Positions 11,001 to 64,000 of a stretch of 64,000 nt of DNA are shown in pieces. A program made the translations under genes and the position numbers. Origin of the DNA: Cafeteria roenbergensis (Eukaryota; Sar; Bigyra; Bicosoecida; Cafeteriaceae); contig VLTN01000004.1 of the NCBI GenBank assembly GCA_008330645.1, forward strand, positions 896,281-960,280, given 5' to 3'. The notes beneath the pieces were generated by a model that was given only the letters and a program-made list of their open reading frames with translations, was not told the DNA's origin and searched no databases. The stretch's first letter is position 1; every line of letters starts with the position of its first letter.

Positions 11001-14000
11001 AGCTGTTGGGGACGGCTGCGGAATCGCGCGGGTGGTGCTGACGCTGCGCCTGTGGGACCCCGACGCCAGGGACTGGCGACACCTCGATGCAGGGGCGCTC
11101 GCCTTCGAGACGGAGTTGGAAACCGGATTTGCGACCACCGAGAAGCCTCCAGCAGGATGGGCGCTGCAGGAGGACGGCGAGGCGGAGGGCGGGGGGCAGG
11201 GCGGAGCCGGCCGCCGCGGCTTGGACGTGAGTGGCGGGGAGGGTGCGTCAGCCTGGCCCCACGGCGGTCCTGGTGACAGGCCTGGCGGGGTCGGAGTCGA
11301 CTCGAGGCTTCCGCGAGGCGGCGGCGCCGCCGCCGCTGCCGCCGGTGCAATGGGGGCACGCTCCAGAGCGGCCTCGGTGCTCAGCAAGTCCGCTGCGTCG
11401 GCCACCTCGACCGTCGCCTCCACGCTCAGCTCCAGCCGCGCGGGCCCCGCCGTGGCCGCTGTTCCCAGCGCGGTGCGTGCGCTGGCCATCAGCCCCGACG
11501 GTGCCCGCCTGGCCGCCGTGGCAGAGGATCCCTTCGCCGTGGCCAGCGCGCGTGAGGCCGGCGACGCAACTGCGGCCGCTCTGACAGCGTCCGCCGTGCG
11601 TGCCGGGTCGTCGGCGTTTGTGCTGGCTGTGTGGGACCTGCGGCCAGCACTTGCCGCTGCTCTGGCGTCCGCGCCCAGCGCGCTGCTCGGCGGCGGAGTC
11701 GCCGCAGAGGCGGCGCGTCTCCGTTTCGCGCAGCCTTGTAGGCGGGAGGGGGGCGTTCCGGGCGCGGCGTGGCTGCCGGCGGGTCAGTCGGTCACGCGGC
11801 CGGCGGTTTCGCCAGCCGCCATCGCCAAAGCGGCCAAGTCTGCGCAGGTCACTGGCGCGGCCGCAGCCGCGGGTGCGAGCGCGGGCGAGCCGGAGGGTGA
11901 CCCTGTGGCCCCGTGCACCTTCAACACGGCTGTGTGGGCGAGCGACTCCGTGCTGGCTCTGAGCGGGCCCGGTGGGCTCTGGGCGGCCACGCTCGCGGAG
12001 CCGAGCGAGGCGTCTGGCCTTGATCGCGCCGACGGCACCGCTGCTGCCGGCTTGCGCTTGGCGAGTGGCATCGAGCGGCTGGAGCTGTCCGTGGGGCGGG
12101 CGCTGTCGTCCGCAGACGTCGCTGGCGCAGCTGCCGCGGACCGGCCCCGCGCCGCTGGCGCGTCGGCCGGAGGGTCGCTGCTGCTGCCTGAGCACTCGCT
12201 CACCTGCCTCGCGGCTCTGCCTGAAGCAGGCGTTGTGGCGGCGGGCGATTCGGCGGGAGCAGTGTGGGTGTTTGCCACGGAGGGGGCCGCTGATGCAGAC
12301 GGCAGGTCCCAGGCCACGAGCTGGCGGCGACGCGCCCAGCGTCCAGCGGAGGGGGGCGCGGCGCTGCGGCCCGTCGCGCGCTCCGCGCTACGGTGGCCCG
12401 CGCCGGCTCACCCGTGGCAGCGCGACCTGCCCCGGCCGCGGGGTCCCGCTGACGCCGTCACGCTGGCGTCCGGCCGGTCCCAGGCCGGGCCGGGCGTGGC
12501 CGAGGGCGTCACTGCGCTGCACATCAGTGCGGACTCGTGGGCAGGGGCGTCGGCCGGTGCGCTGCTGCTCTGCGCGGGGTCGTCCTCTGGAACCGTCGGT
12601 CTGTTCCGGGGGCTGTCATCGCTCGGGGCGGCAGCAGGCGCAGCCACTGCGACCGCGGTGTCCGGTGCGCTGCTCGGGGACGCGCCCGTGCGGTCCGTGA
12701 CGCTGGCCGGGGCGGACGCAGTCGTCTCGACCGGCAGCGGAAGCGTGTGGTGCGTCAGCCTGCCGCGCGGCGCTGTGCTGACGGACGCCTCCGCCGGCGC
12801 AGACTCCGTTTGCGTCCCCTTGGACGACGAGTCCACGCCAGACCCGGAGCTCTACGGGCCCCTGTGTGACGCCGAGGACGTGCCGCCGCCTGCACGACTG
12901 CTCAGCGGGTCCTCCTCGTCCATCCGAGCACTTGCTGTGGCCCCCAGGCCCGTGGCGGCGCACGACGGCGCGTCGCCCACGTTCGCCGAGTGCGCCATCA
13001 CCGTGGCTTGCACTGACAGCGAGGCAGGCCGCGCATCAGGGAGCCCCAACGGGGCGGTGCGGGAGTGGCGAGCCGGGGACTGGGCTGCGGGTGACGACGT
13101 TGTGCCGGTTGCCCCGGGCGCCGCCGCGCACGTGACTGCGATGGCCGTGCCCCCACCCGCCCAGGCAGCGTCCAATGTCTCCGCGGCAGCGCTCGCGGCG
13201 CTTGGCTCCGTTCCGGAGCCGCGCCACGGCGTGGTTGCAGGGTGCGTTGCTCTGGGGATGTCGGACGGGGAGCTTCGCACCGTGCGGCCCAGCGGCTCTG
13301 CCGTGCCTGGGGCATGCTTTGCTCTCTTCGGGTGCAGGCGCGAGGCCGCTTGGCCCCCGCTGCCGCCAGCTCCCGAGGAGCCCAAGCCGCTGACCCGCCG
13401 CTCTGCCGCCCGCGCCTCCAGCCGCAAGAGCGCCCTTCCCTCCTTCAGGCGCCCCAGCGTCGACGTCCAGGCCAGCGCGGCAGCGGCCCTTCGCTCCGTC
13501 CCTGCCCGGCCCATCAACCACGTTGCTCTCGCGTGCGGCGACCTCGACTGCTTCGCCGCCGCGGCGGCAGAGCCGTTCCCAGTGGCGGACCCGCCAGTCT
13601 CTGCCCGCCGCCACGGACGGCGAGGCGACGAGGCGGGCGCAGCCCCGCCGGCCATCCCTGCCCGTGACACCGACGGCGCCAAGGGCACGGCCGCCACTGC
13701 ACGGAGCTCCGATATCGCGCCCAGGCCGCAGTCGTCGGCAGGCCGAGCCAGGCAGCAGGTGTCCAAAGGAAGCTTGCGCCGCACTCGCGCTGGGTCAACT
13801 GCCCCTCGTGGCCCGCGTGCGGGCGCTCCGTCCAGCAAGCGGCAGCAACGGCAGCAGCAGCTGCAACTGCAACAGCAGCATGAGAAGGAGCCGGGGAAGC
13901 CGCTGCCGGCGCGCATGCCCTCGCGGCGCCGGCTCCCCACCGCCGCGACGGTTCGCAGAGTGGTGGGCGAGCCCGACTCGGGCCAAGGCCCAAGCCTTCC

Positions 14001-52296: not shown

Positions 52297-53012
52297 ATGG
52301 TCGTGCAGCGAGGAGTCGGTGGCCCGCTGGTGGGCCAAGCGCTCGGCAAGCATCTTTTCTTGTGCCTCGTGACGGCCGGCGTGCTTGCAAACGCGGACCC
52401 CGTCTCTGGCCCGATCCTCCTTGCCGACATCAACCCGCACGGCCTCGATGGCATGGTTATGGAGCTCGCTGTGGCTCAAGGCCACCTCTTTTTCGGGGCG
52501 ACCCAAACCGGCGGGATCCAAATGCACAAGTACCACCCCGACTCGGGGCTCAAAAGGGTTTCTCACCAGCTTGTCAAGGGAACCGAGTCAATCAACACGC
52601 ACGTGTGTGAATTCGGCGGCAAGGTGTACTTTCAGTCGGAAGTGACGCCCCCGTACGGGTCGAGCCCGTATGGCATCGAGCTCACTAAACTCGACCTGCA
52701 GTACGGCAACGCGGAGCTGGCTCACAGCTTCGTCAGCGGCCCAGTCGGCTCCAAGCCTGCATTCATGACCGTGTTCCAGAGCCGATTGTTTTTGAGCGCG
52801 ATGGGGAGCGAGGCACAAGGGCGGGAGCTCTGGTCGTTGTCCAACAGAATGAGTGCAACCCTTGAGCACGAGTTTAGCAGCACCAGTGGACTCGGCGGCG
52901 ATCCCAAGTACCTCACAGTGTTCATCAACAAGCTCTACATGCAGGCGGACTCCCACGACGCCGAGGTCGGGGTCGAGCTCTACTCCTATTTGGACGGCAG
53001 AGGCGTCGAGCT
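52297..53012 (+). pseudogene. Secreted ELWxxDGT-like repeat protein, interrupted by the AT-rich element
   Basis: The frame opens at 52297 after a C/T-rich leader. The host-encoded part runs about 238 residues until the element begins at 53013, where it picks up four foreign codons and stops. The N-terminus contains a hydrophobic signal segment (HLFLCLVTAGVLANA). The rest shows repeated strands of the form 'G.lyF.a....G.ELW': GGKVYFQSEV...GIELTKLD, QSRLFLSAMG...GRELWSL and INKLYMQADS...GVELYSYLDG. These resemble ELWxxDGT/hyalin-type beta-propeller repeats found in secreted and adhesive proteins. The repeat count is low and the last repeat ends exactly at the junction, so the gene is almost certainly truncated by the insertion. 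The 3' part should lie beyond the element, outside this window. GC content is lower than in neighbouring genes but still host-like. Confidence 0.75.
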
Positions 53013-53102
53013 TGTTATAGTTTAATATATTTCTCCGGCCAAAAATGTGTGTATAGTACTATACACACATTTTTGGCCGGAGAAATATATTAAACTATAA
53101 CA
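53013..53102. repeat. Perfect 90-bp palindrome at the element's left edge
   Basis: I paired the two arms base by base: 45 bp on each side of the centre between 53057 and 53058 match without mismatch or spacer. The arms run from GTTATAGTTTAAT inward to the TATAGTAC core and contain a GCCGGAG/CTCCGGC block. One arm begins directly at the end of host coding sequence and the other continues into the element. Confidence 0.97.
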
Positions 53103-53788
53103 GTGATTTTTCTCTGAATATATTGAAAACAGTGAAATATATTTGCCAAATATGTGTATAGTACATATCGACGCCGATAAGTACCTATAAGTACCTGAAA
53201 ATTCCCAGCAGGTATTACAGGCTAAAAACTTTGCAATATCACCAAAAAAGTTAACGGGTAAAACAAAATGTATGTAAAAAAAAAGGACGCGGTAGAGGGG
53301 GAGCTAGATCAATTCGTAAAATTATTATATTGTAGAAAATTCAGCTCTGAAATCAGAGCTTTATTTTCTCTATGAAATTGGAATATTATTTTGGTTTTTA
53401 TATATTTTTATATTATATTATTATTTTAGTAAGTGATTAAAAAGTGTAAATAGTAATAAAATAAAAAGTGAAGCAGATAAAGAAGAGAAAAGTAAAGTGT
53501 AAAGTGAGGGAGTAAAAAAAACACAAAAAAGTAACGAGGTAAGCAAAAAGTGAAAAAGTGACGAAAAATCTTAAAACTATTAATCAATAGAAAAAAATAT
53601 TAGAGAGAGTAGTTTATGAAAATTTTCCACACTTTCTCCACTTTTGGGTTGCTCATGACTTTTGTATATTTTTATTTTCTCACCTTTTGGGTATCTCGTT
53701 GCTTTTTGAACTTTACCCCTTCAAATACTTACAAGAAAAGGAGAATATAAAAAGGTACTTAAAGATAAAAACCTATAGTATATATATA
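53103..53788. other. Non-coding AT-rich left end, candidate terminal inverted repeat
   Basis: About 690 bases of A/T-rich sequence without a convincing gene. It includes purine-rich AAAGTGA-type runs (53430-53560) and a small hairpin, AGCTCTGA/TCAGAGCT, at 53343-53360. Virophage-like elements of this type usually have long terminal inverted repeats here. The matching right copy is not in the window, so this remains unproven. Confidence 0.5.
53755..53764 (+). promoter_or_regulatory. Candidate element promoter motif, GTACTTAAAG
   Basis: One of six copies of (A)GTACTTAAAG found just upstream of start codons in the element. It ends 24 bases before the ATG at 53789 and is followed by an A/T stretch with CTATAGTATATA. 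Confidence 0.65.
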
Positions 53789-54118
53789 ATGAAGTACGAA
53801 TACAGAAGTGAAAGAACATTCAAAACAAAGAACAAGTATTTGACAAGAATAAATCGTGTGTTAGATAATCCAGAATGCACCAACAAGATTCATGCTATTG
53901 AAAAAGAAATATCTCGTCTCTTTAGTTTATTACAAGAACCTCATAGTGAGTTTGCCTATTATGATGAAAAATTTATTGAAACGTTCAACGGAGACAAGAA
54001 GAAAATTCAAATGTTTGAAGCAATGTCAACAATGTACAAGTATAAAATGAGTCTCTGTCAGAAAATATTCCATGATGATGGAATGGATCATGATGATGCT
54101 TTTGATTTAATAAAATGA
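53789..54118 (+). CDS. Small charged protein of unknown function
   Basis: 109 residues from the ATG at 53789. The frame extends upstream to 53687, but the promoter motif at 53755-53764 argues for the later start. It is rich in Lys, Glu and Asp and predicted largely helical. It ends in DDGMDHDDAFDLIK, an acidic motif that recurs near the C-terminus of the element's helicase (DDGLDDDDAFDMIG). That shared tail suggests both bind the same partner. I recognise no family. Confidence 0.7.
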   Translation: MKYEYRSERTFKTKNKYLTRINRVLDNPECTNKIHAIEKEISRLFSLLQEPHSEFAYYDEKFIETFNGDKKKIQMFEAMSTMYKYKMSLCQKIFHDDGMDHDDAFDLIK

Positions 54119-54137
54119 ACACCGTCCTAGCACAAAG

Positions 54138-54147
54138 ATACTTAAAG
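54138..54147 (+). promoter_or_regulatory. Candidate element promoter motif, ATACTTAAAG
   Basis: Variant copy of the shared motif, ending 26 bases before the ATG at 54174, with TATATATAGTACTTATATA in between. Confidence 0.6.
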
Positions 54148-54173
54148 GCAAAAATATATATAGTACTTATATA

Positions 54174-54323
54174 ATGAAAACCCAAAAGTTCAAATATCTG
54201 GTAATCTACCAAGACGGAAATGATGAATACAAAAAACAAGCATTTTACAAGTACAAGCATGCTCTGAGTTTCAAGAAGCATTTACATGACAACAATGCAA
54301 TGATCAAAAGAGTTCCAAGATAA
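54174..54323 (+). CDS. 49-residue basic protein of unknown function
   Basis: A short frame of 49 residues, MKTQKFKYLVIYQDG to IKRVPR. The start is supported by the motif-plus-TATA-like arrangement immediately upstream, the same as for its neighbours. It has many Lys and Tyr residues and an alternating strand-then-helix look, as in small beta-alpha proteins. No family is recognised. Confidence 0.6.
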   Translation: MKTQKFKYLVIYQDGNDEYKKQAFYKYKHALSFKKHLHDNNAMIKRVPR

Positions 54324-54397
54324 AGACGAATTTAAGGACACACTCTTCAGCGAGTCCGTAAATTTTAATGAACTTTTCTCAACCAATGATATACATT

Positions 54398-54703
54398 ATG
54401 AAGATCACACTGAAATCTATCAAGCCGTCAACCAGAAAAGGGAAGAAGCTCATGGCAACCTTTGAGTTGTATCATAAGGGTCAGACAAGAACCCATGTCG
54501 TTCACTTTGGAGCTGAAGGTAGCTCAACCTATCTAGATCATAAGGATGATACAAAAAAGAAGAACTGGATGGCTCGACACATTGGCAACATCAATAATTC
54601 GCCCAACAATATATCACCTGCTGTTCTTTCTTGGTTGATTTTATGGAACAAGCCGACGATGACAGCATCTATCAAAGATTATAAAAAACGTACGGGATAT
54701 TAG
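54398..54703 (+). CDS. DUF5754-like protein
   Basis: 101 residues from MKITLKSIKPSTRKGKK (an in-frame ATG at 54368 is an alternative start). It shows the pattern I associate with DUF5754: a basic start, KKLMATFE, a strand ending HFGAEGSSTYLDHKD, then RHIGN, and the closing WLILWNKPTMTASIKDYKKR. This small family is common in giant viruses and Polinton-like viruses and has no known function. No copy of the upstream promoter motif is present; it may be co-transcribed with the gene before it, 74 bases upstream. One feature of the family, the SDY box, is degenerate here (SSTYL). Confidence 0.75.
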   Translation: MKITLKSIKPSTRKGKKLMATFELYHKGQTRTHVVHFGAEGSSTYLDHKDDTKKKNWMARHIGNINNSPNNISPAVLSWLILWNKPTMTASIKDYKKRTGY

Positions 54704-54723
54704 AAACCATTTAAAGATTATCT

Positions 54724-54733
54724 AGTACTTAAG
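54724..54733 (+). promoter_or_regulatory. Candidate element promoter motif, AGTACTTAAG
   Basis: Copy of the shared motif lacking one A, ending 13 bases before the ATG at 54747; the closest spacing of the set. Confidence 0.55.
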
Positions 54734-54746
54734 TATATAGAACAGA

Positions 54747-54956
54747 ATGACTGATAAAGATAAAGTAAAGTTCAATGACCGTAAAGCTGAATATTTCAAG
54801 AAATACTTTAATGACAAAGTAAAAGGTAATATATGGCATTGTCCATGTTGTAATAAAGACATCTCAATGAGTAACAAAAGTAAGCATACCAACTCAATGA
54901 GACACAGAAAAAACGCAGAAACGTATGAAAAAACGCATCAAGAAATTGACGCATGA
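54747..54956 (+). CDS. Small single C2H2 zinc-finger protein
   Basis: 69 residues. The centre carries WHCPCCNKDISMSNKSKHTNSMRH, a C-x2-C-x12-H-x5-H zinc finger of the kind found in many small proteins of giant viruses and virophages ('C..C....s.nk..H..s..H'). The rest is lysine-rich. It probably binds nucleic acid, possibly as an element-encoded regulator. It has its own upstream motif copy and lies 43 bases after the DUF5754-like gene. Confidence 0.8.
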   Translation: MTDKDKVKFNDRKAEYFKKYFNDKVKGNIWHCPCCNKDISMSNKSKHTNSMRHRKNAETYEKTHQEIDA

Positions 54957-55024
54957 AATACTTTTTAACTCAATCAAAATTTTGGTAATATTAAAATATC
55001 ACTGAAATTCACGAGTAAAAAAAA

Positions 55025-55035
55025 AGTACTTAAAG
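55025..55035 (+). promoter_or_regulatory. Candidate element promoter motif, AGTACTTAAAG
   Basis: Full-length copy ending 26 bases before the helicase ATG at 55062, followed by AATATTTTATATAGTAATATTATATA. Confidence 0.7.
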
Positions 55036-55061
55036 AATATTTTATATAGTAATATTATATA

Positions 55062-57398
55062 ATGACTGATGCAAACTTAAATTTCTATGTTTTAAATCAA
55101 AGCGATCGCCACATTGCCCAAGCAATATTTGACACAATAAAAAAGACTCATATCATCAGTGATAGTGAGTTATGTAAATATAATGATAAAACCAAATTAT
55201 GGGAAACACAAGGCACGCATTACAATACATATTTGTTAGAATTAGTTGGTTCAATGATTATGAATATTACCACTGCAGAAATTAACATTCTCAAAAAAAA
55301 ACTCAGTAAAGTGTTCAATGATGAAGACAGAACTCGACTTAATATAATTCAAAAGAAAGAAAAAGTCTTATTGACAGCTTCTAAAACTAACTCAATAGTG
55401 ACTATTCTTTACGGAATGCTTAAGAACAAAAACAGCGTACAAAACATTAAAGATTCATTGAAAGATCACGAGTTTCCTATTTCTAATGGTCGTATTATTG
55501 ATTTAAAAAACTTCCAAGATAAGAGAAAGAAAACTTGAGGATTATTGTTTTTATGAGTCGCCTGTGTCATTAGTTGATAAAACACCTAATGCAGACAAAT
55601 TTTTCGGTTCACTTATGAAATTCGACAAAGATTTGGTTGATGTATTGCAGACAATTTTAGGTTATTCAATTACAGGATCAACCGATGAAAAAGCTTTTTT
55701 TATTATGTATGGTTCAACAGCTAACAATGGTAAATCTACCCTTGTGTCTGTTTTACAATCAATACTTGGTCCATATTATCACACAGGAAATAAATCCTTA
55801 ATTATTCAAGAAAAGAATAAATCATATGATAAACCAAACCCTGAATTATTAAGTTTGATAGGAAAAAGAGTCGTCGCCATGTCTGAAAATAGACAAGATG
55901 AAAAGCTTGATGAGTCATCATGGAAGAATCTCGTAGGAAATGATGAACAAAGTGCCAGAACACTTACTTCTAAAGAATTGATCAAATTTAAGCCAAAATG
56001 TAAATTTATCTTTTTAGTTAACAAACCCTTATTAATTGATGTTTCAGATTCTGGATCTGTCAATAGAATTTACAATATTCCATTTGATGCCATCTTTTCA
56101 AAAAAACCAAAACAAGGTGAATATTTGGCAGACGAAGATTTTATTAAAAAGTTATGCTCCGAATACAGAAATGAAGTTTTTACATGGTTGGTTCAAGGTG
56201 CATCCAAATTTTATCAAAATGGTATTCGTGAAAATCAAAAACTGATCGAACTTAAAAATGAGTACATTAAAAAAATTGATATTCATCAGAGATTTATAAA
56301 ATCAAATATCAAACAAGAAGACGGTAATTTTTTGAGAGAAAATCAGAAGTTAAATCAGCATTCCGTGACTTTTTGACACAGGAGCAATTATATAATGTAC
56401 ATTTCAACAACAAGTCAGTAAATAAGCTTTATGAAAAAATCGCTTTAGAATACGTTCAAGTAAAGAATAATGGATATAGTGGATTTAAGAGTTGCTCACT
56501 TGTTGAATCAGAAGATGCAGAATATGAATTAGTTCAAGATGGAAATAATGATGAATCATATAAAATACAATTGAATCGTGAGAAAGAAAAGAATCAAGAG
56601 CTATTAAAGAAATTGCAAAAAATGAAAGAAGATAATGCTAAACTATTAAAACAATTACGACAACCAATCAGAAGAGATGAGATTGTTGATATTATCAAAG
56701 AAGAAAATGAAAAGTTTTTAAAACAATTTGAACAGTATAAAAGTGGTGAAATAATTCAAGAAGTAGATACAGTAAACGAGCAAGAAAGTGAAGAGGTGGA
56801 TGAAGAAGAGGATGTATGTGAAAAAGATTTAGAGAAAATGAGGGAAGAAATGAAGCAATTGATGGAGCAGAACAAGAAGTTGAAGACAAAAAACGCTGAG
56901 CTTGTGAATGATATCAATGAGTATAAAGTATTGGTTGAGACTGAGCGTGAACATTATGAGAAAATGAGGGAAGAAATGAAGCAATTGATGGAGCAGAACA
57001 AGAAGTTGAAGACAAAAAACGATGAGCTTGTGAGTGATATCAATGAGTATAAAGTATTGGTCAAGACTGAGCGTGAGCATTATGAGAATGCCTGTAATCG
57101 TATTGATGTCGTGGAGAGCCTCAACAAGAAACTCATTAAGGAAAAGGAAGATCTCCTCCAAACAGTGAGCAACATTAATGAAACACCTGAGGTCGAAATG
57201 AAAGTGGACGATGGACTTGATGATGACGACGCTTTTGATATGATTGGATCAGATGATGAACCTGAAACCGCACCAACTGACAAGAAAAGTGATGAGACTC
57301 AAGAAGAAGAACAAGTTTGTAAGAAACTGATGAGTCAAATGAAGAAAAAGAAACGTGTGAAACGCACCAAAGTTGATAACTTCACTTTTAACCTATAG
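55062..57398 (+). pseudogene. D5-like SF3 helicase with coiled-coil tail, two frame breaks
   Basis: Three overlapping frames make up one helicase of about 778 residues. The first (55062 to about 55520) is a D5_N-like region ending in GRIIDLKNFQ. The frame then shifts near 55515-55530, and the next part continues with the expected D5 sequence (RERKLEDY...). It contains Walker A GSTANNGKST and the motif-C region KFIFLVNKPLLID of superfamily 3 helicases. A second shift near 56330-56345 leads into the C-terminal winged-helix-like part (FRDFLTQEQLYNVHF). A lysine/glutamate-rich coiled coil and an acidic tail with DDGLDDDDAFDMIG follow. SF3 helicases unwind DNA during replication of this virus group. 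No primase domain is seen before the helicase. The breaks may be real decay or single-base sequence errors in A-rich runs. Confidence 0.82.
56835..57086 (+). repeat. 126-bp tandem duplication in the helicase coiled coil
   Basis: Two adjacent copies, 56835-56960 and 56961-57086, differ at only a few bases. Each encodes 42 residues starting KMREEMKQLMEQNKKLKTKN. The exact codon length keeps the heptad register, so the coiled coil was lengthened by duplication. Confidence 0.95.
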
Positions 57399-57407
57399 TT
57401 TAATTCA

Positions 57408-57418
57408 AGTACTTAAAG
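57408..57418 (+). promoter_or_regulatory. Candidate element promoter motif, AGTACTTAAAG
   Basis: Full-length copy beginning about ten bases after the helicase stop codon and ending 31 bases before the ATG at 57450. Confidence 0.65.
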
Positions 57419-57449
57419 AATGAATGATTATCTAAGCTATTAGTATAGC

Positions 57450-57809
57450 ATGGAAAATCTAGACATCTATGAGAACACCAGTGGAACATCAGGCGATACA
57501 AAGTTTGTAAGCTTTACCGTGGAAAAGACCAACAAAGAAGGTATTAACGTCTACATGAAGCAGCCAGATCTTGACAACATACTCAATACCATTGACAAGA
57601 AGAAAATGGAACTGCCTAAAGATAAACGTGAGAAGTTTCAGTTCATGGTAAGAGCATTAACTCTTGATGGCTGGAAAACACTTTCTTCATTCACAAGATT
57701 CTTCGATATGTCTGATTATGAGGAATACATGAAAGGTAAGATAAGTGAAGAGGGATTCGATAATATTTATACCAAGTTTTCACAGTTCGAGATAATCCTC
57801 AAGTATTGA
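57450..57809 (+). CDS. Unknown element protein, 119 residues
   Basis: An intact frame between helicase and PolB-like genes. The sequence alternates short strands and helices (KFVSFTVEKTNKEGINVYM, then DNILNTIDKKKME, then FDNIYTKFSQFEIIL) and has balanced charge. No family is recognised. Its place in the replication module and its own promoter motif suggest a replication role, for instance single-strand DNA binding or priming, but that is inference. Confidence 0.65.
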   Translation: MENLDIYENTSGTSGDTKFVSFTVEKTNKEGINVYMKQPDLDNILNTIDKKKMELPKDKREKFQFMVRALTLDGWKTLSSFTRFFDMSDYEEYMKGKISEEGFDNIYTKFSQFEIILKY

Positions 57810-57831
57810 GATCTTGGACGCACAAAATTAA

Positions 57832-57842
57832 AGTACTTAAAG
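57832..57842 (+). promoter_or_regulatory. Candidate element promoter motif, AGTACTTAAAG
   Basis: Full-length copy ending 27 bases before the ATG at 57870, followed by AATATTTTCTATAGAACG; the first ten bases after the motif resemble those before the helicase gene. Confidence 0.7.
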
Positions 57843-57869
57843 AATATTTTCTATAGAACGTTATAGAGA

Positions 57870-59090
57870 ATGTTCATAGTTTACTACTTTTCAAAGAAGC
57901 TCAATAAGTATGTGACTTACAATGGTGAATCCATTTCAATGACCAAACTCATGCCAAGAGGTATGTATCTAACGAGTCCATTCAATGCAACACATGATGG
58001 TCTCAAGGAATATCATGCCAAACTGAAGACAGACCAACGTGAGATATCTGGAATGTTACCTGATGATGTAGATCTTCCTTACATCAAGTTTCAAAGTCAT
58101 AGAGTTGCGAAGCTCTTGTGTCTGAATAAACTTCTACCGAAGAAATACCAGAGAAAGAAAGGTGAAGGGTTCTTGGATATCTGTCCACGTGTGAAGAAAG
58201 AGGAAGGTATTTGGCTCAATGGATGCTATAATGCAGGTCTTACTTATGCTGAGAAAGGTACATATAAGAATGTATCAGCATATGATTACAATTCATACTA
58301 CTCACGAATTCTAGGCGGTCGAAAAGGGGGTTTCAAGATTCCAATGTGCGAACCTAGATTTGAGATCATCAAGGAACTTCCTCGTAAAATTCCCTATGGT
58401 GTGTACAGAGCAAAAATAACGTATGACGGACTAGATGATATACAGAAGGTCTTCGCATTCTCATCTAACAACTTTTACACTCATATTGACTTGAAGAATG
58501 CTCATGGTTTATCACTCAAACGATTTCCATCTCTGAAGATCGAACTCATTGATGATGACACACCAAATGCAATGATATATGATGATCTCATTATGGCTAA
58601 AGATATTTTCGGTCATTGGTTTGAGACATTGTCAGAGATAAAAGAAAAGACAAAAGGTAACCATCTCATCAAGCAGATGATGAACATTTGGGGCTTTATT
58701 TGTGAGAAAAGTGTAGTGGTGAAGAAAATACCATGGAGTGAGATACAGACATGGTCACATGAGAAGAGTCTACAATACGACATGTATCCGCTTGATGGCA
58801 TGATGGGAGATGATCCTATATTTACATGCATCTACTTAGGCAATCCATTCAGAACATCAATGGGTCGTATCAAGCCGTTTCTCCAGGCAACAGCACGTGA
58901 TCGCATTGCTCAAATGGTCAGGAAAAGTAGCATCTACGATAATATCATTCGTATCTACTATGATGGTCTTATTTCTAAGAAACCCATTGAGGTTTATGAG
59001 AAAGGGGTAGGCCATTCAATGAAATATGACAAATACCATGGTCATGACATCACTATCAGATCTAAGATTGATATCGAGATACACAAGTGA
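57870..59090 (+). CDS. Family B DNA polymerase palm-like protein
   Basis: An intact frame of 406 residues. Three segments match the order of polymerase B motifs: YDYNSYYSRIL at about 139 (motif A, normally DxxSxYP), LIKQMMNIWGFICEK at about 268 (motif B, normally Kxx.N..YG) and IRIYYDGLIS at about 366 (motif C, normally YxDTDS). The region after motif C (GHSMKYDKYHGHDITI) resembles the thumb of protein-primed polymerases. The protein is much shorter than usual and lacks a recognisable exonuclease domain. In motif C the second catalytic Asp appears to be replaced (DGL instead of DTD), so activity is uncertain. Its place next to the integrase is as in mavirus. An unrelated replication protein is the main alternative. 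Confidence 0.55.
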   Translation: MFIVYYFSKKLNKYVTYNGESISMTKLMPRGMYLTSPFNATHDGLKEYHAKLKTDQREISGMLPDDVDLPYIKFQSHRVAKLLCLNKLLPKKYQRKKGEGFLDICPRVKKEEGIWLNGCYNAGLTYAEKGTYKNVSAYDYNSYYSRILGGRKGGFKIPMCEPRFEIIKELPRKIPYGVYRAKITYDGLDDIQKVFAFSSNNFYTHIDLKNAHGLSLKRFPSLKIELIDDDTPNAMIYDDLIMAKDIFGHWFETLSEIKEKTKGNHLIKQMMNIWGFICEKSVVVKKIPWSEIQTWSHEKSLQYDMYPLDGMMGDDPIFTCIYLGNPFRTSMGRIKPFLQATARDRIAQMVRKSSIYDNIIRIYYDGLISKKPIEVYEKGVGHSMKYDKYHGHDITIRSKIDIEIHK

Positions 59091-59091
59091 T

Positions 59092-60154
59092 CTATTTCTT
59101 CTTAGCTTTTCTTCGTTTATCCAATCTATCGATATAGGCCTCAAGACCATCTTTAATAAGTTGGTCTTTGGGCTCCCATGTGCTTTGGTCTTTTGGGAAA
59201 TCACTCCACCACACGAGATACTCACGTGTTTTGCCTCTACCTCTAGCATCAATGATATCTCTGACTGCAAACCTCTCAATTTTTTGATTCTTTGCCAACC
59301 TTAATTGATCTGCTGTATATGATGCATAACTATTATTATTTATAAGGTAACGATAAGGAATGACATCTGAATTATAACTGAGGACCTGATCCACTTTCAC
59401 AGCTGACCTTGACCATCTTCTATCACCTTCACGAAACCTACCATCGTTGAGCTTTCTTTCTGTGAAGGTTTCTGGTGCATCTAATGCCCAATGAACGATA
59501 TCACCTTTCTTGAACTTGGAGTCTTTGATCGGTACTACAATCTTACGTCTTTTGAATGGATCACCATTCGGAAGCTTTCTGATTGCATTGAGTTCTTTTC
59601 GTATAATTGGAAGTGCTTTGACCCATTCCTTGAATTCATATCCACTTTTTTGTTCTTCTGATGCCATGTATCTATTAAGCAGATAACCAAGTGTCCTGTT
59701 TAAGGATTCCACCGTTGACATCTGTGTCTTACGCCCTACATTGGTGAATTTATGATAAATGTTCTTACCAAACATGTAGTTGTGAAAGATGCCTTTGAAT
59801 TCTGATCCTTGGTCTGTCTGAATTGATGCTTTCGGAAAATTCAAGTGAGGTCTTTGGATCATACTCTTAAATGCATCAAGGACTGTCTGAGGTTTGTTTA
59901 TTCTTGAGTGGTTCAATGTCAAATTCTTTGCTCCAAAGGTCAACCACGACTAGCAAGTATCTATATCCTTCTGATGTAGTTGGCAAGAACAGTAAATCTG
60001 CCATGAAGCTATGATCTTCCATCGGAAATGTGTTTTGTCTTACACTGGTGAATTTCTTTGGAACCTTGGGAGGTTTTGCATAATCAATCACTTCCTGACT
60101 AACATCAAGGTCCTTGAGTATATCATTCAAATTTCGTTTCTTATCTTTGTCCAT
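59092..60154 (-). pseudogene. rve-family integrase with C-terminal chromodomain, one frame break
   Basis: Two overlapping minus-strand frames make one integrase of about 354 residues. The first Asp of the DDE triad lies in FMADLLFLP, before LLVVVDLWSKEF. The frame then shifts near 59897, at an A/C-rich run. The second part contains the second Asp in IQTDQGSEF and the Glu in STVESLNRTLG. A DNA-binding SH3-like segment follows (KKGDIVHWALDAPETF), then a chromodomain, EYLVWWSDFPKDQSTWEPKD, with the aromatic cage residues in place. Such integrases insert retrotransposons, Polintons and mavirus; the chromodomain may direct insertion to modified histones. The start at 60154 (MDKDKKRN) is chosen over an upstream in-frame ATG at 60208. 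The stop lies two bases from the end of the PolB-like gene on the opposite strand. Confidence 0.9.
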
Positions 60155-60217
60155 AAATATGTAAAGAAAAAGAATCTTTTGATCATGAAGAGAGATTGTC
60201 AATGTCATAAACTGGTA

Positions 60218-60422
60218 TCACTGATTTTCCAGCTCTTCAACCCTTGCATGTAGTTGTTGTACTGCTTTAATTAATGGAGCTATAAGTTCGCTGTATCTAA
60301 TACCGTATCTTGTTTCATCTTTGCCATCAATACATTAACCATATAGTTACTACATCTTGTGCAATCAATCCAAAGTGTTTTCTTACTCCCCCATTCTTCC
60401 ACCTGAATGACTTTGGTCTGAG
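60218..60422 (-). pseudogene. Relic of a peptidase S74 intramolecular chaperone domain
   Basis: Read on the minus strand, two pieces match the S74 domain that trims and trimerises phage tail fibres. The first is LRPKSFRW followed by RKHFGLIAQDV; the second is RYSELIAPLIKAVQQLHARVEELENQ with a stop at 60218. The segment in between is missing or replaced and breaks the frame. In the family, these pieces are the catalytic neighbourhood and the C-terminal helices. This is probably the tail of a lost fibre or spike gene. Confidence 0.75.
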
Positions 60423-60605
60423 TTTGTTGATGAGGCTGAGTCAATTAAGGATTATATAAAAACCTATGAATTATGAGAATCAAGCTTTTTAAAAAATCTT
60501 ATTAAAATATATATAGTAATGTTGAGTGAACTCCTCGAGAAAAACACAAAAGACCAACAACAACAAAAATTAGGTGCTACTAGATGTAGTAACTATATGG
60601 TTAAT
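60334..60605. repeat. 24-bp inverted repeat flanking the S74 break
   Basis: ATTAACCATATAGTTACTAC continuing to 60357 is repeated exactly, in opposite orientation, at 60582-60605. The left copy sits at the break inside the S74 relic and the right copy in the next plus-strand gene. Confidence 0.93.
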
Positions 60606-60839
60606 ACACCTTTAGGACTAAGTAAGTTCTTAAAGGAACGTTATCCTCCTGAATTCTTTAAAGATGGAATAATTAGAAAAGAAGCATTGAATTTACATAA
60701 TACAATAAAACGTATCAAGATGGAGAAAACAGAATTATTATCAATTATTTATGAAAAATTTAATAAACTGACCAAAAAAGAGAAAAGAGAACTTAAGTAT
60801 AAAATACCATTAGATTATGGCAAACTTTTTAAAATCTGA
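60519..60839 (+). CDS. Unknown element protein, 106 residues
   Basis: Opens after a TATATATAGTA stretch that resembles the start region of other element genes but lacks the TACTTAAAG box. It is lysine/leucine-rich and helical (SKFLKERYPPEFFKDG, HNTIKRIKMEKTELL). The first 30 residues include the right copy of the 24-bp inverted repeat, so the N-terminus may be rearranged. No family is recognised. It overlaps the next gene by 23 bases. Confidence 0.55.
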   Translation: MLSELLEKNTKDQQQQKLGATRCSNYMVNTPLGLSKFLKERYPPEFFKDGIIRKEALNLHNTIKRIKMEKTELLSIIYEKFNKLTKKEKRELKYKIPLDYGKLFKI

Positions 60840-61134
60840 ACCAATACTTATTAATCGCAAATTTACAAATTTTAGGAAACCTATTAATCATTATATTCAA
60901 GAATATATTAAACTAGATTCAATAATTAGACTTGAAGATGATATATATTTTGATAGTTTTCTATGGGGAAAAAATTTAAAGGACGTAATCGATTATGCAA
61001 ATGAAATATCGAATGGACATCTTGAAAGATTGTATTTAGAACAACTAAATAAAAAAGAAATAACCGATGATATGCGTGTTGCTCCTGAATTTAGAAAGAT
61101 GCAAGAGGAAATTTATGTAGCAACTCAATCATGA
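60817..61134 (+). CDS. Unknown element protein, 105 residues
   Basis: MANFLKSEPILINRKF to VATQS, overlapping the previous gene by 23 bases, as is common in compact viral genomes. It could also be the continuation of that gene after a frameshift, since both are of similar lysine/isoleucine-rich composition. No family is recognised. Confidence 0.55.
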   Translation: MANFLKSEPILINRKFTNFRKPINHYIQEYIKLDSIIRLEDDIYFDSFLWGKNLKDVIDYANEISNGHLERLYLEQLNKKEITDDMRVAPEFRKMQEEIYVATQS

Positions 61135-61255
61135 TTCTGTAAAGTTCTTTAAAGCATGTACGTTGAAGTAATTCTTCTTTTTATGTGGAGATGAAGAAAA
61201 AATCTTTGTCTAATACAATGGATATAGTTCAGAAAAAAATCTTGACTTATATTAT

Positions 61256-61381
61256 ATGTCAGAACTAACAACAACAGCTATAGTATCAATTGCTTCAACA
61301 CTCACTCCTCTAGCATTACATCTCGGTGCATCATGTATGAATCGTGTGAGAAATCCCAAGTACATCAAAAGAATGTTCTAG
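61256..61381 (+). CDS. Small hydrophobic peptide, 41 residues
   Basis: MSELTTTAIVSIASTLTPLALHL, then a short basic end (RNPKYIKRMF). The first half could form one membrane helix. It overlaps the P-loop-like gene by 49 bases. It may be a real small membrane protein, or the original N-terminus of that gene separated by a frameshift. Confidence 0.4.
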   Translation: MSELTTTAIVSIASTLTPLALHLGASCMNRVRNPKYIKRMF

Positions 61382-61872
61382 TTTTGCCCCCAAAAGGTGG
61401 AAAGTCGTATCTTAAGTCAGTGATTCAATCAAACGATGTACTGGTGGTAGACTTGGATGAGTTCATGAACTCCTTCAACACATCAAAAGACCTGGACAGA
61501 CTCAAAGAGTGTGTCAACCATGGTAATCTCCATGAATATGACTTATTTTATCAGGAATGCTCAATCAAATGTCTCGATCGTATCAAGCACATGATAAAGA
61601 ATGCAAAGAAGTTGAGAGTGCTCTTTGTAACCTCTTCTTATTCCTTCTCGTCTCTATTCCGTAAGGATGCCGTCTGTGTTGCATCTCCAAACAGTGACTT
61701 CTTTGAAAAGATTTTAAAAAAAGAAGATGCAGAAACACGTGAAACTCTGAGGAAACGTAGACAGTTCTTATTGGACTCTGTACCAGTCAAGAATGCTATA
61801 ACAACATACAACTCATATGATGAACTGGAAACGATGGTGCGTGATCGTATGGGTCTAAAGAGACATCTATAG
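61333..61872 (+). CDS. P-loop NTPase-like protein, 179 residues
   Basis: Near the N-terminus, NVLVLPPKGGKSYL resembles a Walker A loop after a beta strand, although the first Gly of GxxxxGKS is replaced by Leu. Next comes NDVLVVDLDEFM, a hydrophobic strand ending in acidic residues like Walker B. A further strand, KKLRVLFVTSSYSF, and an Arg-rich stretch, RETLRKRRQF, fit the fold of small nucleotide kinases. In mavirus-like elements a packaging ATPase lies just before the penton and capsid genes, but this protein does not show that family's usual motifs. A nucleotide-kinase-like role is a guess. Confidence 0.5.
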   Translation: MYESCEKSQVHQKNVLVLPPKGGKSYLKSVIQSNDVLVVDLDEFMNSFNTSKDLDRLKECVNHGNLHEYDLFYQECSIKCLDRIKHMIKNAKKLRVLFVTSSYSFSSLFRKDAVCVASPNSDFFEKILKKEDAETRETLRKRRQFLLDSVPVKNAITTYNSYDELETMVRDRMGLKRHL

Positions 61873-61972
61873 ATTCAATAATTTTATGACTTCTATAATT
61901 TAGTTCTCCGAAAGCTAGGAATAATGCAACAGCGAATTCATCAGATATTTTTATCTCTGCTGAATTTATATA

Positions 61973-62847
61973 ATGAGTGTACATACATACGTAAATGGTG
62001 ATCAGCTATCAAATAGTGACTCGGCTACTGCAAGAATAGAGATCAATCGACAAAATGCAGTGATCACTGAGTCAAGAAATACAGACGTATCAATAGAGCG
62101 ATTTGTACTAGAAGGCTTCTTCCCTCTTTTTAAGGTAGAGGATGATATAAGTATTGGTATCATTAATATCTCATCTGGTATACCAGTGTATCAGGAGATA
62201 GATTTCTCACCAAAGTCCAGGGGTGGATTCCTATATAACTATAGACACGTGGCCGAGGCAGTGCAGACAGCCCTTAATACTCTTTGCTCTGCTCTATCTA
62301 TCACTGATGTTCCTGAATTCAAGTTTGACGGTTTTGATAAGTTCACGATTTCAACAACATCAGCATTCCGTGGTGCTTGGCAAATAGCAATGGACTCTAA
62401 AATGTATCGCTACTTTAACACATTTGACTTTGAAACATCAAAATTCCCTTACATTCTCTACCTTGACCAGGATGTGGAAGAACAGAAAACAAGGACCACC
62501 GAGTTCCTATCTCCCTGTCAAAAGGGTTGTTCTTAAGACAAATTTATCAGTTCGTAGTGAATACCTACCCGATCCATCAGTGGACAATAACAATAACAAC
62601 GCCGTTTCATCATCTGATGGTCAATTCTTAGTGGATTATAGATTCTTCCAGTCAGACGGCAATCCGCTTCAAGAGCTCTTTTTTAGTGCAAGCGGTACCA
62701 ACAAACCGCTGGCATAATGTAATAGATGGCTCAACCGTACAAAATTTCTATGTTACATTTGAGTGGATCGATGTCAATAATAACTCTTACCCTGTAACTT
62801 TAAAGGATGGATGCACTGCCTCTCTCAAATGCTATTTCTCAAAATAA
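61973..62847 (+). pseudogene. Candidate minor capsid (penton-like) protein, two frame breaks
   Basis: Three frames in succession, breaking near 62,500 and near 62,700, make about 290 residues. The start MSVHTYVNGDQL is followed by alternating strands (NAVITESRNTDVSIERFVLEG, ISIGIINISSGIPVYQEIDF) and ends in strand-rich sequence (NFYVTFEWIDVNN ... SLKCYFSK). The length, beta-rich look and position immediately before the candidate major capsid gene are those of virophage penton proteins. The identification rests on position and composition; I see no diagnostic motif. Confidence 0.5.
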
Positions 62848-62997
62848 TATAGATTGTCAAAGTTGAAATAGATGGATTGCTTTAATCAGTCTATTTTGCC
62901 AATTATCTCAATGATGTGAAAGTATATAGAAATAAATTCCTCTTGTTACTATTTTGCCAAAAGCATCAAGTTTTTTTCTCAAACTTAAATTATATAC

Positions 62998-64000
62998 ATG
63001 TCCAAATTTACTAATTTAAACAAAGACAAGGTGGTCCTTATTGGATCTTCAAAAATATAGATTCCTTACTGAAGACAACCTTAAAGTAGGTGCTGACTTA
63101 GGTTAATGTAGCATATCAATATAACAGAGTCAGTGCAACTTCAGGCGGAAGTGGGCAAACTCTCAGGAACTGTTGTATTCAAGCTTCTACGGGTTCTGGT
63201 ATGGTAACATCTGTGCCAAGATTAGAATGCAGACTTCCTGTGAATTCGAAGTGCTGCTGCTGGAGACAAGACTTGGCAGCATTTGCCGCGGAACTAGATG
63301 GAAAAGTTGGTCTTGCATGCTATCCGTATGCCAAAGCTTATATCTGCTGGTACCGTCAAATTTGACAATGGTCAAGGTAATTACATCAAGACTTCACAAA
63401 ACTATCAAGTCATCGTCAACTCAATGGATCCCATACAAACTGGCCTTAGCAACTGATGCCCAGGTGTTGAATCAGTATCAAAGTACGAGATATCATTATT
63501 ACAACCCACTTGCATCAGGGTCTAACATCGATCAATTATGTACAAAGCAAGAGGTTTTGGATGCAATTACAAAGTGGAAGTCAGTAATGGTGTGATGGTA
63601 AAGATGCTGGTGAAGGTGGTGTACCAGAAGCACACAAAAGCCATAAAGTTACACTTACCTTTTGTATGGTCCGATCGCCAATTCACTTGATCCATGCCAA
63701 TACAGAGATGTTGGTAATCTCAGCCATTCTATAACTTAGATGATATCGAATTCACCTTGGATATCAAAACAATATTCCGAAAACTGTTTCGCATGTTGAA
63801 GGAACATACAATTCTAACAACAGAACCTATACAGGAACAGGATACACTGCCAAAGCACTTGAAGACGGTGTATCACATAAATTCTTGTATAAACTTTGGA
63901 AACCATCCTTCAAACTAACAGTAACCAAAACAACTCGCATATGCAGTCAACCCAGGTCGATTTAGCCTTTGATGGTAAACCCTGTAGATGTAGATGCAGG
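62998..64000 (+). pseudogene. Candidate major capsid protein, many frame breaks, cut by window end
   Basis: Starts MSKFTNLNKDKVVLIG at 62998. Coding potential then hops between frames every 50-150 bases to the end of the window. Recognisable pieces include VAYQYNRVSATSGGSG, GKVGLACYPYAKA, LATDAQVLNQYQSTR, EVLDAITKW, DIEFTLDIKTIFRKLF and GYTAKALEDGVSHKF. This beta-strand-rich, glycine/serine-rich pattern after a penton-like gene suits the double-jelly-roll capsid protein of virophages and Polinton-like viruses. The dense single-base breaks look more like uncorrected indel errors than slow decay. Full length and identity cannot be judged from this window. Confidence 0.55.

What the first reader, a model, noticed from the sequence alone, without database searches (positions are those of the whole stretch)
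53013..64000. Virophage/Polinton-like element integrated inside a host coding gene
The composition changes sharply at 53013, within the frame of a secreted host protein. The element carries integrase, PolB-like, SF3 helicase, DUF5754-like and capsid candidates. Such elements in protists can be reactivated by giant virus infection and protect the population. This copy combines a D5-type helicase, a very short PolB-like protein and a chromodomain integrase, a set worth placing among known types.
Basis: partly seen in the sequence, partly recalled or inferred. Interest (0 to 1): 0.85.

Follow-up and report, generated by a model that had tools for sequence, protein, structure and literature searches.

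The report
Virophage nested inside another virophage
The AT-rich block is a known kind of integrated virophage in the flagellate Cafeteria, but it sits inside the tip of a second, different virophage whose DNA ends in a perfect hairpin-forming palindrome, which may point to an unusual way of copying virophage genome ends.

Summary
The block is real: the left part of an endogenous mavirus-like element (EMALE), most like type 1, in a Cafeteria burkhardae genome (assembly size closest to strain BVI). The contig ends at 64000. The left boundary was misread: 53013-53276 is the outer tip of a different, mid-GC EMALE, and the low-GC element starts at 53277, inserted in that tip. Contig C144 holds the opposite junction at the same target site (duplication 4-6 bp), so a virophage lies nested in a virophage; C88 probably holds a second case. 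The gene set (D5-type helicase, 406-aa PolB-like protein, chromodomain integrase, mavirus-type penton) is that of a known type; helicase, integrase and penton frames are broken in this copy. The new part is the tip: a perfect 90-bp palindrome. Of 27 mid-GC ends located, 26 could be examined and 20 are perfect palindromes of 90-138 bp in six sequences; in these, differences appear in both arms, even where the two ends of one element differ. The 15 low-GC ends examined start with a homopolymer and have stems of at most 10 bp. This suggests hairpin-type ends in mid-GC EMALEs. Hairpins in virions are inferred, not shown.

The parts
52297..53025 (+). Host-side ORF (242 aa) that runs across the junction
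   Evidence: no homologue
53013..53276 (+). Outer tip of a mid-GC EMALE terminal repeat, next to the host ORF
   Evidence: matches 26 other places in the genome; 13 of those profiled on both sides have 42-45% GC inside
53013..53102 (.). Perfect terminal palindrome, 45+45 bp
   Evidence: DNA fold z -19.5; longest other perfect arm in the window 9 bp in the host part and 7 bp in 53103-64000
53271..53276 (.). Target-site duplication of the inner insertion, TATGTA or a 4-5 base part of it (A-run ambiguity); repeated at the C144 junction
53277..53753 (+). Left terminal inverted repeat of the low-GC EMALE, starting with an A run
   Evidence: 53275-53753 is 99.6% identical to C144 11377-10899
53277..64000 (+). 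Low-GC EMALE (type 1-like), left part; cut by the contig end
53789..54118 (+). ORF of 109 aa, function unknown; the region is missing from the C55 relative
54368..54703 (+). DUF5754 protein
   Evidence: Pfam E 4e-14
55062..56376 (+). D5/P4-type primase-helicase, broken into two ORFs here (55062-55538, 55615-56376); one 555-aa frame on C130, two frames on C55
56622..57398 (+). Predicted coiled-coil-like protein with a 126-bp tandem duplication
   Evidence: coiled-coil nature inferred from the sequence
57870..59090 (+). PolB-like protein, 406 aa, same length on C69, C8 and C114
   Evidence: no Pfam hit
59092..60208 (-). rve integrase with C-terminal chromodomain, broken into two ORFs here; one 353-aa frame on C69, C8 and C94
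61333..61872 (+). ORF of 179 aa, no family found; a P-loop-like GGKS stretch seen by eye
61973..62844 (+). Penton protein (mavirus type), spread over three frames here
62845..64000 (+). Probable start of the major capsid gene, in unpolished sequence
   Evidence: inferred: aligns with C144 1-1123, of which 372-1055 matches a mavirus-type MCP (E 2e-11); no direct MCP hit in the window

Best explanation
Shown by sequence: a mid-GC EMALE abuts the host ORF at 53013, and a low-GC, type 1-like EMALE lies in that element's terminal repeat at 53276/53277 with a 4-6 bp duplication, the far junction being on contig C144. Inferred: each was inserted by its rve integrase as linear DNA, the mid-GC one first. 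Shown: mid-GC ends carry long palindromes whose arms differ between copies in step, while low-GC ends carry a homopolymer and only short stems. Inferred: the mid-GC genome end passes through a fold-back hairpin in which one arm is copied from the other, and the opened, full-length palindrome is what becomes integrated; PolB-bearing low-GC elements copy their ends differently, probably protein-primed with sliding on the homopolymer.
For: Nesting: two sets of genome matches meet at 53276/7; other low-GC copies start at that point against GC-rich DNA; uninterrupted mid-GC ends read through it, and C144 has the complementary junction with a 4-6 bp overlap; its repeat is the closest held to the window's, 99.6%. 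A probable second case is on C88. Palindromes: 20 of 26 examinable mid-GC ends are perfect, in six sequences; C58 ends have different palindromes (134 and 89 bp) but 99.7% identical inner repeats over 976 bp, and C23 ends differ too; 5-bp duplications lie outside the full palindrome on C1, C23 and C58 (flanks, read by eye). Contrast: 12 low-GC ends of the window's kind have stems of at most 8 bp and 3 of another kind 10 bp, against 43-69 bp in the 8 mid-GC ends put through the same script. None of 23 PolB matches lies in the four mid-GC elements with both ends on one contig.
Against: The overlap of C4 and C144 is only 90% identical, so C144 could be another copy. Six of 26 examinable ends are not perfect palindromes: C58 right (3-base loop), C29 left (two single-base gaps), C108 (hybrid), C76 and C110 (one-sided differences; C110 also has an extra outer arm in front), C34 (outer arm missing). 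The three low-GC ends of the other kind have a short imperfect palindrome near the tip, so the contrast is of degree. Selection for a hairpin, without copying between arms, could also keep arms in step. No virion DNA end has been examined; no nickase or resolvase was identified; the tyrosine recombinase search did not complete. Absence of PolB rests on a sequence search and on PMC8547959.
Confidence: 0.6

Rival explanations
1. No nesting: the window element is a recombinant EMALE that gained a mid-GC tip by exchange between types.
For: Recombination between EMALE types is described (EMALE01/02, PMC8547959 section 7).
Against: The low-GC terminus is complete, and C144 shows the mid-GC repeat resuming at the same point with a short duplication, as an insertion would leave.
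Confidence: 0.08
2. Assembly chimera: C4 and/or C144 join unrelated repeat copies.
For: Many similar EMALE copies; contigs end inside elements; C29 has inverted identical flanks around an element; indel-rich contig ends.
Against: Two contigs independently show matching junctions at the same base with a duplication; a chimera would not be expected to make one.
Confidence: 0.1
3. The terminal palindromes are kept by selection as a binding or cruciform site for integrase, transcription or packaging, not by hairpin copying.
For: Short palindromes also occur near the ends of three PolB-bearing low-GC elements; the tip keeps TG...CA.
Against: Perfect identity over 45-69 bp per arm, including a 21-bp block that the window's version lacks in both arms, is more than a binding site usually needs; the two ends of an element may differ while each stays symmetrical.
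Confidence: 0.25
4. Within the hairpin reading: the element's own tyrosine recombinase works as a telomere resolvase on the palindrome.
For: Mid-GC EMALEs are reported to encode a tyrosine recombinase besides the rve integrase (PMC8547959 section 7); a telomere resolvase and a telRL-like palindrome are proposed in phaeoviruses (PMC13236599, passages).
Against: The gene was not obtained here (search unanswered); it may be an ordinary integrase, and a giant-virus resolvase could serve as well.
Confidence: 0.12

Closest known systems
EMALE type 1 (low-GC endogenous mavirus-like element, Cafeteria burkhardae; PMC8547959)
   Same: Low GC, helicase, PolB-like protein and rve integrase near the 5' end, mavirus-type penton, terminal inverted repeat, short target duplication; a ~6.9-kb 5' part shared with an element without a detected penton of this type, as EMALE01 and EMALE02 share theirs
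   Different: Inserted in another EMALE; three broken frames in this assembly copy; only the left part is on this contig
Mid-GC EMALE (types 5-8; PMC8547959)
   Same: The outer element: mid GC, D5-type primase/helicase next to the repeat on C144, no PolB match in four bounded elements
   Different: Its terminal palindrome is not mentioned in the main text of that paper ('palindrom' 0, 'hairpin' 0)
Retrotransposons nested in virophages and Polinton-like viruses (PMC8547959, PMC12220804, PMC12747079; passages)
   Same: A mobile element inside an integrated virophage
   Different: Here the inserted element is itself a virophage
Hairpin-ended DNA genomes: poxviruses, asfarviruses, chloroviruses (PMC11814242, PMC9614988, PMC11788076; passages) and parvoviruses (recalled)
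   Same: Terminal palindromes within inverted repeats; arms that change together; some tips with inner inverted repeats
   Different: Closed or folded ends are not shown here; the copies are integrated and carry the full palindrome inside a 5-bp duplication

Membership tests
Low-GC EMALE, type 1 | GC 30-38% in a ~70% GC host, integrated with terminal repeats and short duplications | tested here: met
   0.29-0.40 per kb; repeat and 4-6 bp duplication, with the far end on C144
Low-GC EMALE, type 1 | rve integrase near the 5' end | tested here: met
   59092-60208, broken here; a whole relative has rve and Chromo domains
Low-GC EMALE, type 1 | primase/helicase | tested here: met
   DUF5906; the C130 relative passes the TIGR01613 cut-off
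Low-GC EMALE, type 1 | protein-primed PolB | tested here: inconclusive
   PolB-like by alignment and motifs seen by eye; no Pfam, PHROGs or NCBIfam hit; protein priming not testable
Low-GC EMALE, type 1 | mavirus-type penton and MCP | tested here: inconclusive
   penton met; MCP seen only on C144
Low-GC EMALE, type 1 | position in trees of core proteins | not tested
   no type reference sequences were obtained
Nested insertion of one EMALE in another | both junctions at one target site with a duplication | tested here: met
   window 53276/7 and C144 11377/8; that both belong to one event is inferred
Hairpin-ended genome | terminal palindrome with arms that change together | tested here: met
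   20 of 26 examinable mid-GC ends perfect, six sequences
Hairpin-ended genome | closed or folded-back ends in virion or replicating DNA | not testable with these tools
   only integrated copies are available
Hairpin-ended genome | nickase or resolvase gene in the element | not tested
   the own-genome search with PF00589 did not complete

The most novel reading that the evidence does not exclude
Mid-GC EMALEs are virophages with hairpin telomeres: without PolB they copy their ends by fold-back (parvovirus-like) or by resolving a perfect palindrome, perhaps with their own tyrosine recombinase, and integrate the opened, full-length palindrome. Related virophages in one host would thus use two unlike solutions to the end-replication problem.
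Probability: 0.45. Interest if true: 0.82.

Novelty: new variant of a known kind. Interest (0 to 1): 0.62.

Why it matters
How virophages without a protein-primed polymerase copy their DNA ends was not explained in any passage that I read. Terminal palindromes whose arms change in step give a testable answer for mid-GC EMALEs, and a contrast with PolB-bearing relatives in the same host. Virophage-in-virophage nesting would be a route for exchange between types, and a cause of misdrawn element borders and broken assemblies.

Tried and rejected
Rejected: one element from 53013 on (two elements); a dispersed MITE-like or solo retrotransposon repeat at 53013-53276 (in 13 of 13 copies profiled on both sides it is the edge of 42-45% GC DNA); a fold-back read artefact for the palindrome (20 perfect ends at the same element position with different flanks; the two C29 ends share theirs); PolB shortened by damage (same length on C69, C8 and C114).

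Led nowhere: five IMG/VR scans gave no relative. The penton protein search gave two. The host ORF gave none. Trees of integrase and capsid were not made. Of the papers listed by six searches on termini some were not opened (among them PMC7248222, PMC5718144 and the general transposon papers). Supplements could not be read. The review PMC11426020 is not held.
Full report
Where the window lies. It is the last 64000 bases of contig C4 (960280 bp) of a 36.30-Mb, 167-contig genome. PMC6972860 (passages) lists four Cafeteria roenbergensis assemblies (called C. burkhardae in PMC8547959); BVI (170 contigs, 36,327,047 bp, 70.1% GC) is closest in size. The strain is inferred.

What the block is. GC drops from 0.63 to 0.29 at 53 kb. 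The ORFs include DUF5754 (E 4e-14), a D5/P4-type helicase, a chromodomain integrase and a penton that matches the mavirus penton in the PDB (6g41, listed as minor capsid protein; that it is the mavirus penton is recalled), E 1.4e-17 for the window piece and 1.8e-32 for an intact relative. The integrase is one 353-aa frame on C69, C8 and C94, 352 aa on C55 and 329 aa on C114, but broken on C130; the C69 protein has rve and Chromo domains. The helicase is one 555-aa frame on C130 and passes the TIGR01613 cut-off, but is in two frames on C55. The PolB-like protein is 406 aa here, on C69, C8 and C114; the ORFs of other elements on C55 (212 kb), C2, C56 and C100 are 570-615 aa. This is the gene content given for low-GC EMALEs in PMC8547959 (sections 6-10). 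The element at C55 107-131 kb aligns at 93-99% over 53276-58018, except for about 0.35 kb that it lacks, then at 75% to 60133, and then no longer; the penton search found none inside it. That resembles the EMALE01/EMALE02 pair of the paper, so I call the window element EMALE01-like. No tree was made.

Two elements, not one. The query 52800-53500 gave two sets of matches that meet at 53276/53277. In the other low-GC copies the inner set begins directly at GC-rich DNA (L004, L006, L008, L013, L024, and the more distant L002, L003, L005, L007). The outer set (53013-53276) matches 26 other places; the count is a lower bound because only the best candidates are scored. In the 13 with enough sequence on both sides the inside is 42-45% GC and the outside 60-71% GC, except 45% for L020 on C88. 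Uninterrupted mid-GC ends (L016, L017, L025) read straight through the junction. C144 has the missing side: the end of a low-GC terminal repeat followed by the continuation of the mid-GC repeat, the flanks overlapping by 4-6 bases depending on how the A run is split. The C144 repeat is 99.6% identical to the window's over 479 bp, the highest of the copies compared. C144 then runs into a D5-type primase/helicase gene (D5_N E 1.9e-9). Against this: C144's first 1123 bp align with the window's last 1154 bp at only 90%, with 79 gap columns of 1178, mostly single bases. I read this as two unpolished ends of one element; another copy is not excluded.

Recurrence. On C88 a perfect 130-bp mid-GC palindrome (13169-13298) is followed outwards by DNA of 45% GC with a mavirus-type MCP ORF (6g43, E 1.7e-20), so a second nesting is likely; its other junction was not seen. 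In the passages read, 'nested' refers to retrotransposons in virophages or Polinton-like viruses or to the layered parasitism itself. One search for nested or integrated virophages listed 18 papers, most of them not opened, and supplements were not readable, so absence from print is not established.

The palindrome. 53013-53102 is a perfect 45+45 bp palindrome. With the window, 27 mid-GC ends were located; for one (C161) the stretch fetched stopped short. Of the other 26, 20 are perfect: 14 of 130 bp, three of 132 bp (two sequences) and one each of 134, 138 and 90 bp. The other six are C58 right (89 bp, perfect arms around a 3-base loop), C29 left (two single-base gaps), C108 (a hybrid of two arm kinds), C76 and C110 (one-sided differences, C110 with an extra outer arm in front) and C34 (outer arm missing). 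In the perfect versions every difference is present in both arms, including a 21-bp block that the window's version lacks; the 134- and 138-bp versions have a further inverted repeat within each arm (seen by eye). C58 ends differ in the palindrome (134 and 89 bp) while the inner 976 bp are 99.7% identical; C23 ends differ (138 and 130 bp; repeats 85-91%); C1 ends are alike (99.2%, both 130 bp). From the flanks, C1, C23 and C58 have 5-bp duplications outside the full palindrome, and ends on C48 and C86 share one; the two C29 flanks are copies of each other and give none.

Contrast with low-GC ends. Twelve ends of the window's kind start with an A run of 7-9 (one preceded by G) and have stems of at most 8 bp in 140 bases; three ends of another low-GC kind (C2, C55, C96) start with a C run and have 10-bp stems and, by eye, an imperfect palindrome of about 31 bp. 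Eight mid-GC ends run through the same script have stems of 43-69 bp. None of the 23 PolB matches lies within the four mid-GC elements with both ends on one contig (C1, C23, C29, C58), in line with PMC8547959.

Mechanism. Insertion by the rve integrase with short duplications is the ordinary reading for both elements. For the mid-GC tip I propose a fold-back hairpin stage: a template relation between the arms is the simplest reason why each end is symmetrical in itself while ends differ. Copies with one-sided differences may be old ones that no longer replicate; that is a guess. Closed hairpins that are opened later and self-priming strands are both possible. A terminal homopolymer fits protein-primed sliding, which I recall from other systems. 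Hairpin ends are in print for several giant viruses (PMC11814242, PMC9614988, PMC11788076, passages), and a telomere resolvase with a palindrome is proposed for phaeoviruses (PMC13236599, passages). Six searches on virophage or Polinton-like termini and the passages seen in twelve papers, with word counts in the two EMALE papers, showed no hairpin or palindromic ends for virophages; some listed papers were not opened.

State of this copy. Helicase, integrase and penton are frame-broken here. The contig end looks unpolished, and PMC8547959 (section 10) reports that Sanger assemblies did not confirm fragmentation of conserved genes, so I do not call them pseudogenes. Whether this type wakes under any giant virus is unknown; with CroV, 99.4% (BVI) and 99.9% (E4-10) of reads mapped to type 4 elements (PMC10945749, passages).

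Noticed in passing
window 53754, 55025, 57408, 57832 (and 60625): AGTACTTAAAG with at most one mismatch occurs 5 times in the window, all in the element (0.14 expected); four lie 24-31 bases before an ATG, so it may be a promoter motif unlike the TCTA of mavirus.
   Followed up: partly
mid-GC terminal repeat, e.g. L022 from 1458: TATAGTAC and AAGTACCT words and a TATCGACGTCGATA palindrome recur in a ~115-bp tandem unit behind the terminal palindrome, possibly binding sites.
   Followed up: no
G000 C29 about 7079 and 32900 (L018, L019): Both host flanks of a mid-GC element are the same sequence in inverted orientation: inverted host repeat or assembly artefact.
   Followed up: no
window 53008-53012 and L039 (C23 left end): The last five host bases before 53013 would also fit the C23 left flank as duplication partner, although that end already pairs with the C23 right end; probably chance.
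   Followed up: no
G000 C144 5037-5706: Lipase class 3-like ORFs (E 1.9e-6) in two frames of the right part of a low-GC EMALE.
   Followed up: no
window 56824-57075: Two tandem copies of 126 bp (94%) inside the 258-aa coiled-coil-like ORF; C55 and C130 have corresponding copies.
   Followed up: no
PolB-like ORFs L065, L067, L070, L072: The longer PolB-like proteins have about 200 extra N-terminal residues with an N..CL..C stretch that recalls an OTU protease domain (from memory; no Pfam hit).
   Followed up: no
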